Assembly (NCBI RefSeq): GCF_026210795.1
Contig: NC_089429.1
Span: 6,853,001 to 6,917,000, forward strand
Reading direction: 5' to 3'
Length of the DNA: 64,000 nucleotides
Source of the DNA: Rhizophagus irregularis
Taxonomy: Eukaryota; Glomeromycota; Glomeromycetes; Glomerales; Glomeraceae
The notes under the pieces were generated by a model, which ran no database searches, was not told where the DNA came from, and saw nothing but the letters and a program-made list of their open reading frames with translations. The number at the start of each line of letters is the position of its first letter. The first letter of the stretch is position 1. Of the stretch, positions 33,474 to 63,204 are shown in pieces. The position numbers and the translations under genes are program-made.

Positions 33474-33817
33474 CCCTATAAAAAAAAAATTCTTTAAAAT
33501 GTACTTAAAATATACTTATGTATTTTTTAAAATATACTTAAAATATACTTATATATTTTAAAATATACCTAAAATATACTCAACATTTTAAAATATACTT
33601 AAAATATACTTAAAATTGCAATTTTAAGTATATTTAAAGTATAAAATTTTGCACTTAAATTATACTTAAATTATATTTAAATTGCAATTAAGTATATTTT
33701 AAATGTAATTTAAGTATAAAATTTTATACTTTAAATATACTTAAAATTGCAATTTTAAGTATATTATAAGTACATTTACATTTTAAGTATATTTTAAAGA
33801 AATTTTTTTTCATAGGG
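33474..33817. mobile_element. CCCTAT-ended palindromic element, copy 1
   Basis: The ends read CCCTATAAAAA on the left and, in complement, CCCTATGAAAA on the right, followed in both by TTCTTTAAAAT.TACTTAAA. ATT flanks both sides (33471-33473 and 33818-33820), a possible 3-bp duplication. The interior is built from repeats of TACTTAAAATATA on one side and the complement on the other, with TTAAAATTGCAATTTTAA palindromes between. It is non-coding and could fold into a long hairpin. A second element of this design lies at 44317-44849. Confidence 0.75.
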
Positions 33818-42846: not shown

Positions 42847-43931
42847 ACAAAATGTCTTTACTTTTATTTTTATTTTTATTAATGGGTTCCAGTTAGAAAC
42901 CTAACATGGATGCGATTATAAGTAGAAAATTACATATAAGTCAAAATTGACAAAAATACTAACTAAACTACACGTGAAAATAATCTACTCAAACTGGTGG
43001 GCAATTAACAGGAAGAAGGTATAATGTGAGATACTAAAATTAGACCCCACGACACAAAAACCCAGATAACGCCACTGCTTCCCATACTCTCGCTTAGGTA
43101 AACCTAAGTTTTGGTAAGTTGAAGCCCGTACCCCGCAGATTATCAAACTGAACCGCCAGCTCCTGGTTGGAAAAATCCCCCCACACTGGTCGATAAAAAT
43201 AAATTCTCCAAGTGACTATATTACCAGAGTTAATAAACTACCTAAGAGTAAACTAAAGGGGAACTTTTTAGTGTCGTGCAATCCCCGAAAGGACACCCAC
43301 CTCATTTCGAACGATCCCTCCAATCTAAACTAAACCGCAGAAAAAAACCCATAATAGTCCAAACATGTGCCACCTTGACCTCACCTGACCAAAAACTGAT
43401 CACCAAGATCTGCACCCCCTTAAATTACACCCAACTCTCTCAAAAGAAAAGATCTACAAACCACCTGATGTCGATCAATTTTGGGATACCCCCCTACCCC
43501 CCAGAAAAACTCCAAAAAGCAGAAGGCAAAAAAGAAAGATGAGAAAAATTCACCAAAAAAATAAGAAAAATTCATAACCCTAGGAAAACCAACCCAAAGG
43601 AGTAAAAACCTAGGTAAAGAGGGAAATTTCACCAAACTATCACCAGGAACAACACCTTATTATTAAGAAAGCGAACTTTCACCACTGAGCGAAATGGAAA
43701 TTTCTTCCTTCCAGCTTGGAATCTTCAACCTTATAACCAAAGTCGTTCAAAACATATGAACAAGTGCCGCTGGACCCAATAGAGACAAGTAGCGGAAACC
43801 AAGTTGGTGTTTTAACCAGGTATTTAGGGCAACTTCTTTAAATACGAGTATTTTAAAATGAGTGAAATATTATTTCCATTAAGAAAAGTGAGAGAAAGGA
43901 GAGAGAGTTTTTCACAAAATGTCTTTACTTT
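42847..43931 (-). mobile_element. 1.05-kb retroposon with 18-bp target duplication
   Basis: An 18-bp duplication, ACAAAATGTCTTTACTTT, lies at 42847-42864 and 43914-43931. The insert (42865-43913) is on the minus strand. Its 3' tail appears on the plus strand as TTATTTTTATTTTTATT at 42865-42882, a (TAAAA)n-type tail. The body is markedly richer in GC than the surroundings and has no convincing protein. Its 3' region shares GGGCTTCAACTTACCAA, a TATGGGA stretch and GGTGG.GCAATTAA with 63330-63450, the untranslated end of the LINE at 63.2-64 kb. It is thus either a severely truncated LINE or a non-autonomous derivative using the LINE's 3' end. Confidence 0.85.
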
Positions 43932-44316
43932 AAAACAATAAAAAGATATTATTGGGCGTTTTTTATAAAACTAGTAACGATTTTGTTGATCATTTGTTGA
44001 TCATTTATTTTTAAATTTATTATAAATTTTATCACGAGATTTTCTATGGAAATCATTTCTCAATTTGTTATTAAAACACCTGCTGAATTGCCTTGAAATT
44101 GAAAATCATTTCCCTTTTTATAAAAAAATTTCCTTTTTGGTAAAAAACTCTCAGATTAATCTTATATAACTTTATGTCAATGTCAATGACAATGACAATG
44201 AAAAAAACTTCTAATGCCAACTTTTCGCAAAAACTCTTCCTGTGCCACTAAAATTCCCTGTTAAATTGTTGCATCATTCAATATTTGCATAATTTCATTT
44301 TTTTGTTGATCATTAA

Positions 44317-44849
44317 CCCTATAAAAAGTATTATACTTAAAATATATTTAAAATATATTTAAAATATACTTAATTTAAAAATTGCAAAATACTTAAAATA
44401 TATATTTAATATATCTAAAATATACTTAAAATTATCTTAAAACATATGTCTAATATATTTAATTTTTGCCCATATACTTAAAATATATTTAAATTATATT
44501 TAAATTAAAATTTAAGTATATTATAAGACTATTATAAGTATATTTTTTATGTATTTAAAATATACTTAAAATATATTATAAAATATATTATAAGTATATT
44601 TTAAGTATGTAAAAAATATATCTATAATATACTTAAATTTTGATTTAAGTATAATTTAAGTATATTTTAAGTATTTTGGCAAAAATTAAATATATTAAAT
44701 ATATTTTAAATATATTTTGTAATTTTAAATACATTTTAAGTATATTATAAGTATTTCGCAATTTTTAAATTAAATATATTTTAAGTATAATTTAAATATA
44801 TTTTAAAAAGTTTTTAATTATATTTTAAATATAAATACTTTTTATAGGG
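44317..44849. mobile_element. CCCTAT-ended palindromic element, copy 2
   Basis: The ends are CCCTATAAAAAGTATT and its complement, with TAA immediately outside both (44314-44316 and 44850-44852), a possible 3-bp duplication. The interior is again a long inverted array of TACTTAAAATATA-like repeats, about 530 bp in all. The shared design with 33474-33817 defines a family. It has no ORF. Confidence 0.75.
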
Positions 44850-44937
44850 TAAAATTTCATAAAATATTGCAAAAAAATAAAAAAAATTGTAGAAAAAATG
44901 TTTCAGCATTTTTTCATATAATTATTATTAAAAAAAA

Positions 44938-46004
44938 CGCCTAAACGGCATTTTTTCATATTATTTAATGGAAAAATGCCGTTTTGGCATTTTTTTTCAC
45001 TTCTTTTATGAAAAAAATCGCCAAAATGGCGTTTTTTCATATTATTTAATGGAAAAATGCCGTTTTGGCATTTTTTTTCATTTCTTTTATGAAAAAAATC
45101 GCCAAAGCGGCATTTTTTCATATTATCTTATGGAAAAATGCAGTTTTGGCATTTTCTTTCACTTCTTTTATGAAAAAAATCGCCAAAACGGCATTTTTTT
45201 CATATTATTTAATGAAAAAATGCTGTTTTGGCATTTTCTTTCACTTCTTTTATGAAAAAAATCGCCAAAACGGCGTTTTTTCATATTATTTAATGGAAAA
45301 ATGCCGAAACGGCATTTTTTTTCACTTCTTTTATGAAAAAAATCGCCAAAACGGCATTTTTTCATTTTATTTAATGGAAAAATGCCGAAACGGCATTTTT
45401 TTCACTTCTTTTATGAAAAAAATCGCCAAAGCGGCTTTTTTCATATTATCTTATGGAAAAATGCCGAAACGGCATTTTTTTTCATTTCTTTTATAAAAAA
45501 ATCGCCAAAGCGGCAATTTTTTCATATTATCTTATGGAAAAATGCCGTTTTAGCATTTTTTTTTACTTCTTTTATGAAAAAAATCGCCAAAATGGCGTTT
45601 TTTCATATTATTTTATGTAAAAATGCCAAAACGGGATTTTTTTTCACTTCTTTTATGAAAAAAATTGCCAAAGCGGCTTTTTTCATATTATCTTATGGAA
45701 AAATGCCGTTTTGGCATTTTTTTTCACTTCTTTTATGAAAAAAATCGCCAAAACGACATTTTTTTTCACTTCTTTTATGAAAAAAATCGCCAAAACGGCA
45801 TTTTTTTCATATTATTTAATGAAAAAATGCCAAAACGGCATTTTTTTTACTTCTTTTATGAAAAAAATCGCCAAATCGGCTTTTTTCATATTATCTTATG
45901 GAAAAATGCCAAAACGGCATTTTTTCCACTTCTTTTATGAAAAAATCTCCAAAACGGCATTTTTTCATATTATTTGATGGAAAAATGCCGAAACGGCATT
46001 TTTT
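44938..46004. repeat. 81-bp tandem array of GCCGTTTTGGC hairpins (array B)
   Basis: About 13 units with a period of about 81 bp (GAAAAATGCC-like starts at 44971, 45052, 45133, 45214 and 45296). Each unit contains two short hairpins: ATGCCGTTTTGGCAT or ATGCCGAAACGGCAT, and ATCGCCAAAACGGC. Conserved TCACTTCTTTTATGAAAAAA and TCATATTATTTAATG spacers join them. Several overlapping ORFs in both strands (up to 143 codons) are products of the periodicity; a period divisible by three keeps frames open. I do not regard them as genes. Confidence 0.95.
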
Positions 46005-46019
46005 AGCATTTTATTAAAT

Positions 46020-46095
46020 AAAAAAAAAACGTTGCAAAAACGTTTTTTAATATACAATTAATTTAAAAAGAACGTTTCTCAACGTTTTTTCTTTT
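46020..46095. repeat. AACGTT-type palindromic repeat, first block (array C)
   Basis: AACGTTGCAAAAACGTT and AACGTTTCTCAACGTT are short palindromic units belonging to the family that resumes at 46400. Confidence 0.7.
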
Positions 46096-46106
46096 TTTTT
46101 ATAAAT

Positions 46107-46386
46107 CAGGTTACCCGGTCACCTGAAATGACCCGAATATTTTCAGGTCAAAACGGGTTACCTGAAATGACCCGAATACTTTCAGGTCAAACGGGTCAGG
46201 TCAGGTCAGAGCAGGTTACCCGACCTGACCCGACCTGATAAAAATTTTTGGTTCAGGTCAGACAAATTACCTGACCCGACCCGACCCGTGCGGAGCTCTA
46301 GTCAGGTCAGGTCAGGTCAGGTTATATCAGATTATCTGTTTGACCTGACCTGACCTGAAACCTAAAAAATTTCAGGTTAACCCAAA
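46107..46386. repeat. (GGTCA/GACCC)n repeat (array D, first block)
   Basis: Repeats of CAGGT and complement GACCT/GACCC in both orientations, including GGTCAGGTCAGGTCAGG, form mutually complementary tracts. At 46287-46300 GTGCGGAGCTCTA follows three GACCC units. Such pentamer-rich tracts ending in an AGAGCTC sequence resemble termini of some hAT elements, but I cannot identify a matching second end or target duplication. Confidence 0.75.
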
Positions 46387-46399
46387 TGATTTTTATTAA

Positions 46400-47030
46400 A
46401 TTATTGAAAAAAAATGTTGCGCAATGTTTTTTTCTAATATAATGTTATATAAAAAATGTTTTCACAACGTTTTTCAATAAAATATAAAAAAAAAATGTTG
46501 CAAAACATTTTTTCCTAATATAATGTTATAGAAAAAACGTTTTCGCAATGTTTTTCAATAAAATATCAAAAAAAAAGTTGCGAAACATTTTTTCCTAATA
46601 TAATGTTATAGAAAAAACGTTTTCGCAACGTTTTTCAATAAAATATCAAGAAAAACGTTGCAAAACATTTTTTCCTAATATAATCTTATAGAAAAATCGA
46701 TTTCGCAATAAAATATCAAGAAAAATGTTGCAAACATTTTTTCCTAATATAATGATATAGAAATAACGTTTTCACAACGTTTTCCAATAAAATATCAAGA
46801 AAAATGTTGCGAAACATTTTTTCTATAACATTATATTAGGAAAAAACATTTCGCAACATTTTTCTTAATATTTTATTGGAAAACGTTGTGAAAACGTTTT
46901 TTTCTATATCATTATATTAGGAAAAAATATTTTGCAACGTTTTTCAATAAAATATCAAAAAAAAAACATTGCAAAATGTTTTTTTCTATAGAAAAAATGT
47001 CTTCGCAATATTTTTCAATAAAACAAGAGT
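46400..47030. repeat. AACGTT-type tandem array (array C, second block)
   Basis: Units of about 80-86 bp contain an AACGTTTTCGCAACGTT-like hairpin, CAATAAAATATCAA, GTTGCAAAACATT and CCTAATATAATGTTATAG. In the last units (from about 46800) the order is inverted, so the block is a large inverted repeat as well as a tandem array. Confidence 0.9.
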
Positions 47031-47149
47031 TCTGTTTAAAGGGGAGTTAGGACTATAAAATATAAAGTATATGAAATATGATTTATTTTGAACTTGTTCA
47101 TTTCAATAAAATCATGACATTCGAAAAAATCTATGTTACAACCTAATAG

Positions 47150-47655
47150 CTTAATTCTAATTAGCTAATTTAGTATTAGGTTTTAATTTAAAAAATTAAG
47201 CAGTATCAAGGAGAATTCTCGCAAATTTTTCTTAATACTGCTTAAATTATAATTTAGCTAATTTAGTATTAGGTTTTAACCTAAAAAATTAGGCAGTATT
47301 AAGGGAAATTCTCATGAATTTTTCTTAATACTGCTTAATTCTAATTTAGCTAATTTAGTATTAGGTTTAATTTAAAAAATTAAGCAGTATCAAGACAAAT
47401 ACTCGCGAATTTTTCTTAATACTGCTTAATTCTAATTTAGCTAATTTAGTATTAGGTTTTAATTTAAAAAATTAAGCAGTATCAAGAGAAATTCTCGCGA
47501 ATTTTTCTTAATACTGCTTAATTCTAATTTAGCTAATTTAGTATTAGGTTTTAATTTAAAAAATTAAGCAGTATCAAGGGAAATTCTCACGAATTTTTCT
47601 TAATACTGCTTAATTCTAATTTAGCTAATTTAGTATTAGTTTTAATTTAAAAATA
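47150..47655. repeat. 92-bp tandem array of long hairpins (array E)
   Basis: Five to six units with a period of 91-92 bp (AATTTAG starts at 47251, 47343, 47434, 47526 and 47618). Each unit is nearly a complete hairpin: AAGCAGTATCAAG..GAAATTC pairs with GAATTTTTCTTAATACTGCTT (arms of about 20 nt), and CTAATTTAGCTAATTTAG forms a second palindrome. Substitutions in one arm are sometimes matched in the other. Confidence 0.95.
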
Positions 47656-47885
47656 ATTTTAAAAACGTTTTTTTCTAATATAATCTTATAGAAAAAATGT
47701 TTTTGCAACATTTTTCAATAAAATATCAAAAAAAAAGTTGCAAAACATTTTTTTCTAATATAATCTTATAGAAAAAATGTTTTCGCAACATTTTTCAATA
47801 AAATATCAAAAAAAAAGTTGCGAAATGTTTTTTTCTAATATAATCTTATAGAAAAATCATTTTCCCAATGTTTTTTTTAATATAT
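47656..47885. repeat. AACGTT-type array resumes (array C, third block)
   Basis: The same units as 46400-47030 return after array E. Array E therefore interrupts array C, either as an insertion or as a local replacement. Confidence 0.85.
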
Positions 47886-47910
47886 CATTATAAAATAATA
47901 GTATTGTTAG

Positions 47911-48050
47911 TTTCAGGTCAACAGGTCATTCAGATTTTACTGATGTTACAACCTGAACTGATGCCAAATCGAAATTGCTAAACCTGACCTGATAAATTCA
48001 GGTCAACCTGTCAGGTTACCTGAATTTGGACAACCTGTTCAGAACTCTAA
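47911..48050. repeat. CAGGTC-type repeat (array D, second block)
   Basis: Complementary CAGGTCA/TGACCTG motifs recur, ending TGTTCAGAACTCTAA at 48036-48050. This end resembles GTGCGGAGCTCTA at 46287-46300, and an inverted match AGAGTTCTGTTTAAAGG lies at about 47027. These could be element termini at both sides of 47.03-48.05 kb; flanking duplications were not found. Confidence 0.65.
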
Positions 48051-48052
48051 TT

Positions 48053-48345
48053 TTTAACCACAGAAACGTCAAGTCTGACATTTTTTAACTAAAAAAATTC
48101 AGTTTTTGATTTTTTAATTACAAAAACGTCAAGTCTGACGTTTTTAATTAATAAAATCATTTTTTTTTGATTATTAATTACAAAAACACCAAGTCTTATG
48201 TTTTTAACCAAAAAAATCAATTTTTTTGATTTTTAATCAAATCTAACATAAAAATGATTTTTTAATCATAAAAACGTCAAGTCTGACGTTTTTAATAAAA
48301 AAAAATCAATTTTTTTTATATTTAATTATAAAAACGTTTGATGAC
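48053..48345. repeat. ACGTCAAGTCTGACGT hairpin array (array F)
   Basis: Four diverged units of about 60-80 bp contain AACGTCAAGTCTGACGTT, a 7-bp stem with a 4-nt loop, separated by AAAAATCAATTTTTTTGATT-like palindromic spacers. A short GACCCGACCC tract at about 48342 closes the cluster. Confidence 0.85.
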
Positions 48346-48594
48346 CCGACCCAAAATTTTCGAGTCAATCTGACAGTATAATGATTATAACTCACTAACA
48401 ATTACCAAGTTACTCTAGTTTTAGGGTAAATTTAATTTTTTTAATCTGTTTCCATACAAAAATTCTAAATGGCCATTTAGAATTTTTGTATCACATTAAG
48501 TACTATAAAATAGGAATTTGTACGTCAAATTCAAAATTTTACATATTCTTCCTCTCTTTCCCTATTTTTTTTTTTTTAAGTCATATCACAAGTC

Positions 48595-50105
48595 ATGTCA
48601 GTAATGTCTTTGCCAATATTGCCAATTGAATGTTTCGATAACATACTCTCTTTTCTTGATAATAAATCTTTATACAAATGTTTATTTGTTAATAGATATT
48701 ACTGTAAAGTTACTATTCCAATTATTTGGAGAAACCCTTTATCAAGCAATTTTCAATTTCTATTAGCCGTTCATTAATAAAAACATTACTTGCATGTCTT
48801 AATGAGGATGAAATTTCTTTATTAATCCCTTGTGCGATAAAATTTAATATTAAACCTCCTTTATTTGAATATGAAAGATTCATAAAAAAATTAAATCATG
48901 ATTGTTGTGTGGAACACATCGAACAATTTATCAAATCCTTACCTGAATTATTAAGTGGAAATGATTATTCTAATTGCAGAGAAAAGTTGATTTATTCTAT
49001 ATATAATATGATAATTCAAAAAAGCTCATTCTTAGAGGAGTTTGAAGTAAATGTAGCCCAGAAAGGTTATGTTGACTTACCAAAATCTTCCATTTTTACA
49101 AATTATGAACCTGGATTTAAAATTTAAGTACTTTAACTATATTTAATTTAGATTTAATAAGTAATGATACAAAACGTAAGAATACCACCAAATTTTTAAA
49201 TATGATTTCTACATTTTGTTAATATGGAACTATGGATTAAATCTCTCAATGGCATATATGTGAAGCAATATATGGATATTATCAAATTTCAACCTTTAAG
49301 AAGATTATTTATATATATCAATAATAGTGAAAAAATTTCATTTAACTTGGGATTGGAATTTCGATCTGAAACTTTGAAAGAACTAATACTTGATAGTGTT
49401 GATTTTAAATATATTAATTTATCATTTATATCAAAATTAAAATGTTTAGAACTACTTGAATTTTTATACTGTAAAGGTTTCAATCGTTGTAAGATTCAAT
49501 CTGGGAGTAAATTACATCTTAAAGAATTCAAACTTTGGTATTGTACTAGTACTGGGGCTTCCATAGAAGAAATTATTAGTTATCTTTGTAATGAATCATT
49601 ATTAAAGCTAGCTTTGAGTTATATCACTCCAAAAGCTGCTGAAACAGTAAAAGAATCTTGCCCAAATATTAGTTCTTTATGCATACAAATATGTTCTGAT
49701 TCAGTAATTCCATTTATCTGTGAATTACGTTCATTAAAAGTTCTAAACATTGGACCTGATTATGGAATTGATATGAGTTCATTGGTTAAAAGCTTAGGCA
49801 ATCATTTAACATCTGTTGAATATTTATTTTTTGATTTTAATGTTGATTTACTAAGTTTTATTTATTTTACTAATTACTGTAAGGCTAATTTAAAAAAATG
49901 GATTATTACCCTAGATAATAATTCTTTATGCAAGGAATATTTGATTTATGTATATAATTTTCAAAAGGTTCATAATTCTTTAAAAGAATTTGGAATTAAT
50001 AAGTATAGATATAATTGGACTAATGAAGAACTTGAAATTGTTGATATGTTAAAGAATCAAGGAATTAATATTGTTAAATCTGGTGAATTAGATTTATTTC
50101 ATTAA
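48595..50105 (+). pseudogene. F-box/LRR protein gene broken by frameshifts
   Basis: The start at 48595 opens with LPILPIECFDNILSFLDNKS, then CLFVNRYYCKVTIPIIWRNP, a clear N-terminal F-box. Around 48745-48775 the frame shifts and continues as ISRSLIKTLLACLNEDEISL to 49127. A third frame (about 49113-49218) reads DLISNDTKRKNTTKFLNMIS. The last frame, from about 49221 to 50105, holds about 290 residues with leucine-rich repeats (for example LKELILDSVDF, LKVLNIGPDYG). The order and total length of about 500 residues match the expanded fungal F-box family, which supplies substrates to SCF ligases. At least three frame breaks at AT-rich sites point to a young pseudogene, unless base-calling errors are responsible. 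Confidence 0.88.
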
Positions 50106-63079: not shown

Positions 63080-63204
63080 CAGATACTTTAATACAAGAAT
63101 GGAGTATTTACTGTTGATTTGCCCTATAAGAAATATGTATACGGAAAGGAAACGTTTTGTATACATTTTATGTACGTTTCTATAGATTCCGTATACAAAT
63201 TCCG

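What the first reader, a model, noticed from the sequence alone, without database searches (positions are those of the whole stretch)
44317..48345. Cluster of at least six distinct palindromic tandem-repeat families in 4 kb
Back to back lie the TACTTAAAATATA inverted array, 81-bp GCCGTTTTGGC hairpins, AACGTT hairpins, GGTCA/GACCC tracts, 92-bp long hairpins (AAGCAGTAT...ATACTGCTT) and ACGTCAAGTCTGACGT hairpins. They share no sequence, yet all are built from self-complementary units. Convergent architecture from unrelated sequence suggests a process that amplifies hairpins (replication slippage at cruciforms, or rolling-circle type copying), or a locus selected for structured RNA. No gene is inside. 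I know of no described element with this layout.
Basis: partly seen in the sequence, partly recalled or inferred. Interest (0 to 1): 0.88.

Follow-up and report, generated by a model that had tools for sequence, protein, structure and literature searches.

The report
Nested hairpin transposons inside a Helitron
The cluster of hairpin repeats is one mobile element of a soil fungus, a non-autonomous rolling-circle transposon (Helitron kind) that picked up other small transposons, each with its own hairpin array, and was then copied as a unit to about a dozen places in the genome.

Summary
The repeats are real, but the cluster is neither an unknown element nor an in-situ hairpin amplification. 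Window 43930-48418 is one copy of a dispersed, non-autonomous rolling-circle (Helitron-superfamily) element of a Rhizophagus irregularis-like genome. Its ends (5'-TTAAAACAATAAAAAG...CTCTAG-3') recur at 81 left and 82 right ends, giving 79 one-to-one pairs. Seven paired elements carry a Helitron Rep domain; one was read: 14.8 kb, 1370-aa RepHel. One empty site shows insertion between A and T. The ends match proto-Helentron-Pi (PMC4067079). Six simple copies examined are left module, 60-bp hairpin array, right module. Twelve copies carry a hAT-type MITE with its own hairpin arrays, inserted in that array with 8-bp duplication ATTTTTAA. Seven of the twelve carry a GCC-hairpin array related to another hAT MITE. 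Only the window copy carries the 533-bp AT palindrome, an insertion with 3-bp TSD. Pieces of five of the six families fold better than 200 of 200 shuffles. Why unrelated elements carry hairpin arrays is unsolved; length changes, often near unit size, favour slippage or unequal exchange.

The parts
43930..48418 (+). whole element, 4489 bp including the 533-bp insertion; reading direction that of the RepHel gene in the full-length relative
   Evidence: ends shared with 81 left ends and 48+34 right ends, 79 one-to-one pairs; empty site of copy L027
43930..44316 (+). left module, first part; begins TTAAAACAATAAAAAGATATTATTGGGCG
   Evidence: 72 of 81 left ends identical over 29 bp
43936..43954 (.). 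terminal hairpin CAATAA-7-TTATTG
   Evidence: six pairs; 26 of 200 shuffles of the 61-nt stretch fold as well, so weak
43969..43978 (+). subterminal inverted repeat AACTAGTAAC (partner at 48409-48420)
44174..44200 (+). ATGTCAATG microsatellite; in two composite copies (L026, L028) the left end lies 8-11 kb further away, so an insert sits at or near it (insert not read)
   Evidence: coordinates
44317..44849 (.). 533-bp AT-rich palindromic MITE (CCCTATAAAAAGTATT...AATACTTTTTATAGGG), TSD TAA; only in this one of 12 composite copies
   Evidence: 11 of 11 other copies give the empty site; probe absent in those 11; 35 or more other places; 3-bp TSDs CAA, ATG, TCA, ATA, TGG at L003-L007, none seen at L002, L008 not matched
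44850..44924 (+). left module, second part
44925..46024 (.). GCC hairpin array (81-bp units, about 13), from hAT MITE #1 and/or the left-module hairpin
46025..46100 (.). pair of AACGTT hairpins
46110..46300 (.). GGTCA/GACCC subterminal tract and right end of hAT MITE #1; TIR CCCGTGCGGAGCTCTA at 46285-46300
46301..48049 (.). hAT MITE #2 without its left TIR; right TIR CCTGTTCAGAACTCTA at 48034-48049
   Evidence: left TIR (TAGAGTTCTGAATGGGTCAGG) present in L025, L027, L029, L030, L031 and absent inside the element in the other 7
46390..46988 (.). AACGTT/AATGTT hairpin array (80-bp units) in MITE #2
47024..47150 (.). non-repetitive spacer, present in 12 of 12 composite copies
47149..47653 (.). 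92-bp hairpin array
47649..47900 (.). second AACGTT hairpin block
47912..48049 (.). GGTCA subterminal tract of MITE #2
48050..48057 (.). right copy of the 8-bp target duplication ATTTTTAA of MITE #2
   Evidence: left copy before TAGAGTTCTG in 5 of 5 intermediate copies; right copy in 11 of 12 copies, L029 one T shorter
48058..48345 (.). remaining 60-bp ACGTCAAGTCTGACGT hairpins, the original central array
48346..48418 (+). right module ending GTTACTCTAG (inverted repeat 48409-48420)

Best explanation
Window 43930-48418 is a non-autonomous rolling-circle transposon (Helitron superfamily, closest in its ends to the 'proto-Helentron' of Phytophthora) of a Rhizophagus irregularis-like genome. It is probably moved in trans by full-length relatives that share its ends and encode a RepHel protein (Rep nuclease plus PIF1 helicase): one strand copied from end to end and inserted between A and T. 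The ancestral short element was left module + array of 60-bp hairpins + right module. A hAT-type MITE carrying its own hairpin arrays inserted into that array (8-bp TSD). In one branch a second hAT MITE with GCC hairpins was added and then lost its left end, probably by deletion between similar hairpins. The composite was copied to at least 12 places; last, a 533-bp AT-rich MITE entered the window copy. Shown: shared ends, RepHel relatives, dispersed copies, empty sites, TSDs, order of layers. Inferred: present mobility, trans-mobilisation, the strand-copying step, the deletion step, and that arrays lengthen and shorten by slippage or unequal exchange between hairpin units.
For: Ends: 81 left ends (72 exact), 48 right ends of this type and 34 of the full-length type; 79 of 81 left ends have their own right end in the same orientation within 60 kb. 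Rep: all 90 Rep-domain matches were held against the 24 paired elements longer than 7.2 kb (the 55 shorter pairs were not checked): 8 lie inside, 7 of them in the same orientation and 2757-2938 bp from the right end. The one read in full (C14, 14.8 kb) has an unbroken 1370-aa ORF with Helitron_like_N E 4e-16 and PIF1 E 2e-26. Four others were fetched at the predicted right end and 4 of 4 have it. Composite: window plus 11 loci, same order, different flanks. Layers: 5 of 12 copies have MITE #2 with its left TIR and TSD and no GCC array, 7 of 12 have the GCC array, 1 of 12 the AT MITE. Six short copies examined (1.3-2.5 kb) lack GCC, 92-bp, spacer and hAT probes and have the 60-bp array. Empty site for copy L027: CATA/TTTCTTATAGGG against CATA-TTAAAAC...CTAG-TTTCTTATAGGG. 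Shared modules are on average 98.7-99.8% identical between composite copies (four modules, 10-12 copies each). Base before the left TT is A in 10 of 13 copies and 3 of 5 more (L057 left out, its end is altered).
Against: No canonical 3' hairpin stands near CTAG (z +0.9), and the left hairpin is weak (26 of 200 shuffles as good). P0001 has RGAIHTH where the paper gives RG(S/L)(P/L)HxH for Rep motif 2, so the exact subgroup is open. Which end is 5' is not settled: RepHel sense and CTAG say left, the hairpin and inverted-repeat spacing say right. Only one empty site was found, and a 2-bp TT duplication would also fit it. One of the 8 Rep matches inside pairs has the opposite orientation (in the 26-kb element). 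The origin of the 92-bp array is not traced. For MITE #1 neither the left TIR nor the left TSD survives, and L026 and L028 also lack its right end. No expression or transposition data.
Confidence: 0.92

Rival explanations
1. A hairpin-amplifying process (cruciform slippage or rolling-circle copying) built the cluster in place, turning unrelated sequence into palindromic arrays.
For: Pieces of several unrelated families fold far better than shuffles; array length differs between copies, e.g. the 60-bp array left of MITE #2 has 10, 7, 5, 4 and 2 detected units in L025, L031, L027, L029, L030, and the GCC array spans 13-25 unit lengths in 7 copies.
Against: The families are separable transposons with their own TIRs and TSDs; the same set in the same order lies at 12 places; GCC arrays exist in hAT MITEs outside the carrier. 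Irregular unit spacings are shared between simple copies L053 and L055 (98.9% identical, one 31-bp and one 59-bp gap), so most of the array is inherited with the copy. Not all gaps between copies are unit multiples.
Confidence: 0.15
2. The locus is kept for structured RNA (precursor of small RNAs).
For: Strong hairpins in the folded strand. PMC8647823 (one passage seen) reports that all TE superfamilies of R. irregularis, Helitrons included, yield small RNA.
Against: None of 74 weak Rfam matches reaches its gathering score; most are generic miRNA-like hairpins. Array presence and length vary among copies. No covariation test was made and no RNA data were at hand.
Confidence: 0.05
3. A chance nest of independent insertions at this locus only, or an assembly artefact.
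For: Each layer does look like an insertion of a known transposon type. No independent assembly could be compared.
Against: Eleven other dispersed copies with the same order and different flanks; only the last layer is private to the window.
Confidence: 0.02
4. The carrier is a Crypton (tyrosine-recombinase transposon).
For: A Phage_integrase-like fragment (E 3e-05, below cut-off) lies near a diverged relative of the left end in L044.
Against: Seven elements bounded by these ends carry a Rep domain. In C14 the four ORFs of 120 codons or more were scanned: RepHel, one with a Myb/SANT-like domain (E 5.5e-09), two without a match over cut-off; no recombinase.
Confidence: 0.01

Closest known systems
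proto-Helentron-Pi of Phytophthora infestans (PMC4067079, section 11 read, passages seen)
   Same: 5'TT and 3'CTAG ends, about 14 kb, RepHel without C-terminal endonuclease, no target duplication, insertion between A and T
   Different: Rep motif 2 reads RGAIHTH here; the extra ORFs differ; here copies without a detected Rep outnumber the coding ones
HINE / DINE-1 non-autonomous Helentrons, incl. oyster Cg_HINE (PMC4067079 and PMC7492417, passages and abstract seen)
   Same: two conserved modules around central tandem repeats, subterminal inverted repeats, autonomous partner in the first paper; Cg_HINE central repeats come from one, exceptionally two, clusters
   Different: central repeats here are strong hairpins, and the composite includes nested hAT MITEs with their own hairpin arrays
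FoHeli, non-canonical Helitrons of Fusarium oxysporum (PMC5148889, abstract and sections 6 and 13 read)
   Same: asymmetric inverted repeats, hairpin at one end in one group, RepHel orientation that can be inverted
   Different: other terminal sequences (TCAG/ATTTT or TGCCT/CTCCTGT) and other target
hAT-type MITEs (family features recalled)
   Same: 8-bp TSD; short TIR TAGAGCTCCGCACGGGT; subterminal GGTCA motifs (role as transposase sites recalled from hAT elements, not tested)
   Different: interior is a long hairpin array; no transposase-coding partner with this TIR was found

Membership tests
Helitron superfamily | partner encoding Rep (HUH) plus PIF1-type helicase between the same ends | tested here: met
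   one element read; Rep domain in 7; IHTH and YMTKYVTK motifs visible in P0001 and, with changes, in five homologues (motif meaning recalled)
Helitron superfamily | no target site duplication | tested here: met
   one empty site; a TT duplication cannot be told apart
canonical Helitron (Helitron1) | 5'TC | tested here: not met
   left end TTAAAAC in 80 of 81 matches, the other TCTCAAC (up to 3 mismatches allowed)
canonical Helitron (Helitron1) | 16-20-nt palindrome about 11 bp before 3' CTRR | tested here: not met
   no hairpin at 48380-48420, z +0.9
proto-Helentron | 5'TT and 3'CTAG | tested here: met
proto-Helentron | insertion between A and T | tested here: met
   empty site; A in 13 of 18 left flanks, so not strict; T after CTAG in 82 of 82 right ends matched (T is in the pattern, 3 and 2 mismatches were allowed)
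proto-Helentron | Helentron-type Rep motif 2 (S after RG) | tested here: not met
   RGAIHTH in P0001; paper gives RG(S/L)(P/L)HxH
Helentron / HINE | subterminal inverted repeats | tested here: inconclusive
   AACTAGTAAC 43969-43978 against GTTACTCTAGTT 48409-48420, ten bases with a 2-bp gap; no chance control
Helentron / HINE | short palindrome near one terminus | tested here: inconclusive
   six-bp stem 43936-43954; 26 of 200 shuffles fold as well
Helentron | C-terminal endonuclease domain | tested here: not met
   no such Pfam domain in P0001 at E 0.01
Helentron / HINE | central tandem repeats between two modules | tested here: met
   six simple copies
hAT superfamily (MITEs #1 and #2) | 8-bp target site duplication | tested here: met
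   L034, L035, L036, L037, L038 exact, L032 (damaged TIR) and L033 7 of 8 bases (7 loci, read by eye); MITE #2 ATTTTTAA
hAT superfamily (MITEs #1 and #2) | transposase-encoding partner with the same TIR | tested here: inconclusive
   20 TIR places, 150 of 835 transposase candidates scored; comparison by eye showed none nearby

The most novel reading that the evidence does not exclude
In this fungus a host-level process (for example fork stalling and template switching at hairpins) turns the interiors of unrelated non-autonomous transposons into palindromic tandem arrays, and a rolling-circle element then collects these arrays and spreads them as composite units, so that hairpin arrays behave as a heritable, mobile kind of satellite.
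Probability: 0.25. Interest if true: 0.6.

Novelty: new member of a known kind. Interest (0 to 1): 0.36.

Why it matters
It replaces a puzzling cluster by a stack of transposons in readable order and gives exact ends, partners and copy numbers for a rolling-circle family in a Glomeromycotan genome in which, according to the abstract of PMC11075540 (seen), two thirds of TEs are unclassified. The layered copies are natural time points: they show a Helitron acquiring other transposons' arrays and spreading them. They also make the question why these elements carry hairpin arrays testable by comparing strains.

Tried and rejected
Crypton reading: suggested by an integrase-like fragment in L044; dropped once RepHel was found between the ends.

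TA target duplication for the GGTCA elements: my first reading in the notes; replaced by the 8-bp duplication seen.

PIF/Harbinger for the AT-rich MITE (TAA duplication): dropped because duplications at L003-L007 are CAA, ATG, TCA, ATA, TGG (L002 shows none, L008 was not matched). CACTA/CMC-like is possible, not tested.

Structured RNA: no Rfam family above gathering score.

Autonomous hAT partner: not found, with only 150 of 835 candidates scored.

Literature: the listings (titles and abstract starts) showed no paper on this element or on palindromic arrays in Rhizophagus; only the passages or sections named elsewhere were read, and subscription journals are mostly not held.

The fuzzy unit counts are lower bounds, used for presence or absence only; the AACGTT probe there hits every sequence, the simple copies too, and says nothing. 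The window-L022 alignment is broken up and was not used.
Full report
What is there. The window lies in a 146.7-Mb genome of 32 contigs. A RepHel protein from it is 99-100% identical, over 56-81% of the searched region, to four proteins named Rhizophagus irregularis DAOM 181602=DAOM 197198. I take it to be that species or a close strain. One piece of each family was folded as DNA: GCC z -7.2, AACGTT -4.75, 92-bp -3.4, 60-bp -4.6, GGTCA tract -4.4, each with 0 of 200 shuffles as good; the AT-rich piece was only -1.07. Of seven pieces from other tandem arrays in the window, five did not fold better than chance and two did (z -2.79 and -3.13). So hairpin units are not simply what any tandem array here looks like, but they are not confined to this element either.

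It is one dispersed element. Searching the genome with 44834-48600 gave near-full-length copies elsewhere (40 of 1430 candidates scored). Fetched with flanks, 11 loci (L021-L031) share the order of arrays and differ in flanks. Pattern searches found 81 left ends (72 exact over 29 bp), 48 right ends (12 exact, 35 with one mismatch, 1 with two) and 34 right ends of the full-length type (33 exact). Paired by order and orientation within 60 kb, 79 of 81 left ends have their own right end; 2 left and 3 right ends are unpaired. The 12 exact right ends are precisely the window and the 11 composite loci.

Its partner. All 90 Helitron Rep-domain matches were held against the 24 paired elements longer than 7.2 kb; the 55 shorter ones were not checked. 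Eight matches lie inside: one in opposite orientation (in the 26-kb element) and seven in the same orientation, 2757-2938 bp from the right end, in seven different elements. Five of the seven elements are 14.5-15.2 kb long and two are longer (26 and 45 kb). All seven have the full-length type right end. One (C14) was read: an unbroken 1370-aa ORF with Helitron_like_N (4e-16) and PIF1 (2e-26), with the right end 14.83 kb from the left. Its three other ORFs of 120 codons or more gave one Myb/SANT-like domain (5.5e-09) and nothing else over cut-off. Four further Rep elements were checked at the predicted place and 4 of 4 have the same right end. The window element has no gene that I could find.

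Insertion. The left flank of copy L027 is a repeat that also occurs in the window near 63134. There the uninterrupted sequence reads CATA/TTTCTTATAGGG, while L027 reads CATA-[TTAAAAC...CTAG]-TTTCTTATAGGG. This is insertion between A and T without duplication; a 2-bp TT duplication fits as well. The base before TT is A in 10 of 13 copies and 3 of 5 further ones (L057 left out). The ends 5'TT and 3'CTAG and the A/T target are those described for proto-Helentron-Pi (PMC4067079, section 11). Against a plain assignment: Rep motif 2 reads RGAIHTH, not the Helentron form; no hairpin stands near CTAG; the left terminal hairpin is weak (26 of 200 shuffles as good). The inverted repeat AACTAGTAAC / GTTACTCTAGTT has no chance control. 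Which end is 5' stays open. An inverted RepHel orientation is known in Helitron2-like elements (PMC5148889, section 6), so the reverse reading is not excluded.

Layers. (1) Six short copies examined (L053-L058, 1.3-2.5 kb) consist of left module, 60-bp ACGTCAAGTCTGACGT hairpins and right module. (2) In five copies (L025, L027, L029, L030, L031) that array is split by a unit starting TAGAGTTCTGAATGGGTCAGG and ending GTTCAGAACTCTA, with ATTTTTAA before it in 5 of 5; ATTTTTAA follows it in 11 of 12 composite copies, L029 being one T shorter. This is an 8-bp duplication, as in hAT elements. The unit holds the AACGTT arrays, a spacer and the 92-bp array; its right end and the spacer are found in 12 of 12 composite copies. 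(3) In the other seven copies (window, L021-L024, L026, L028) the left TIR of this unit is absent from the element and the GCC array stands in its place; in five of the seven the array runs into a hAT right end (...GTGCGGAGCTCTA or one base off), which L026 and L028 lack. Elsewhere GCC arrays sit inside MITEs with TIR TAGAGCTCCGCACGGGT and 8-bp duplications: five of seven loci exact, two with one mismatch, one of these with a damaged TIR. The left half of this MITE is missing in the composite; deletion between its hairpins and the similar hairpin of the left module is my inference. (4) The 533-bp AT palindrome has TIRs CCCTATAAAAAGTATT, a TAA duplication, at least 35 other copies of 92-98% identity, and occurs in 1 of 12 composite copies.

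Age and array dynamics. Shared modules are on average 98.7-99.8% identical among composite copies (four modules, 10-12 copies each), so the spread is recent. Detected 60-bp units left of MITE #2 number 10, 7, 5, 4 and 2 in five copies, while those to its right keep one spacing pattern in four of the five and have one more unit in L025. GCC arrays span 13 to 25 unit lengths in seven copies. Between simple copies L053 and L055, irregular spacings are shared and identity is 98.9% with one 31-bp and one 59-bp gap. Arrays are thus inherited with the copy and then gain or lose pieces, often near one or two units but not always: window against L023 shows gaps of 83, 161 and 164 bp, but also 39, 42 and 54 bp. 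Slippage or unequal exchange explains this; a review of satellite origins from transposons (PMC12628747, section 6 part 1 read) lists such mechanisms and rolling-circle errors.

Verdict. Ordinary in kind, well resolved in detail: a non-autonomous, proto-Helentron-like Helitron with hairpin central repeats that has become a carrier of nested hAT MITEs. What stays open is why these unrelated small elements have palindromic interiors.

Noticed in passing
window 42847-43930: A retroelement of about 1.05 kb, SINE-like, on the minus strand (A-rich AATAAAAAT tail, 17-bp duplication ACAAAATGTCTTTACTT) abuts the left end of the element. By eye at least 6 of 81 left ends have such a copy next to them, which suggests a hot spot at the TT/AAAA of the end.
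   Followed up: partly
L045/L046 (C19:3560180-3570470): A 10.2-kb copy with the same ends holds two near-identical 518-codon open frames; the one scanned has no Pfam match. It also has large 60-bp arrays and a 180-bp array.
   Followed up: partly
L042 (C20:1661010 region): A copy with the full-length type right end carries a hAT-type MITE with yet another hairpin array (AAAAGTGAGTTGC...GCGATTCACTTTT) beside AACGTT hairpins (read by eye).
   Followed up: partly
L039, L040: 92-bp hairpin arrays occur at 10 or more other places; in the two examined they share a right flank, so they belong to a further repeat not identified here.
   Followed up: no
L044 1-255: Fragment resembling a tyrosine recombinase (Phage_integrase E 3e-05, below cut-off) beside a diverged relative of the element's left end.
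   Followed up: partly
L047/L048 (C14:1836765-1851591): The full-length element also has a 122-codon frame on the opposite strand with a Myb/SANT-like DNA-binding domain (E 5.5e-09).
   Followed up: no
window 48597-50105: F-box-like start and a 293-codon open frame right of the element, probably one of the genome's F-box genes.
   Followed up: no
window 33493-33805: Another AT-rich array made of TTAAAATATAC units that resembles the 533-bp MITE; one piece folds better than shuffles (z -3.13).
   Followed up: no
C1:6918811-6920981 (L053): A simple copy of the same element (2.17 kb) lies about 17 kb beyond the window copy, just past the end of the window.
   Followed up: yes
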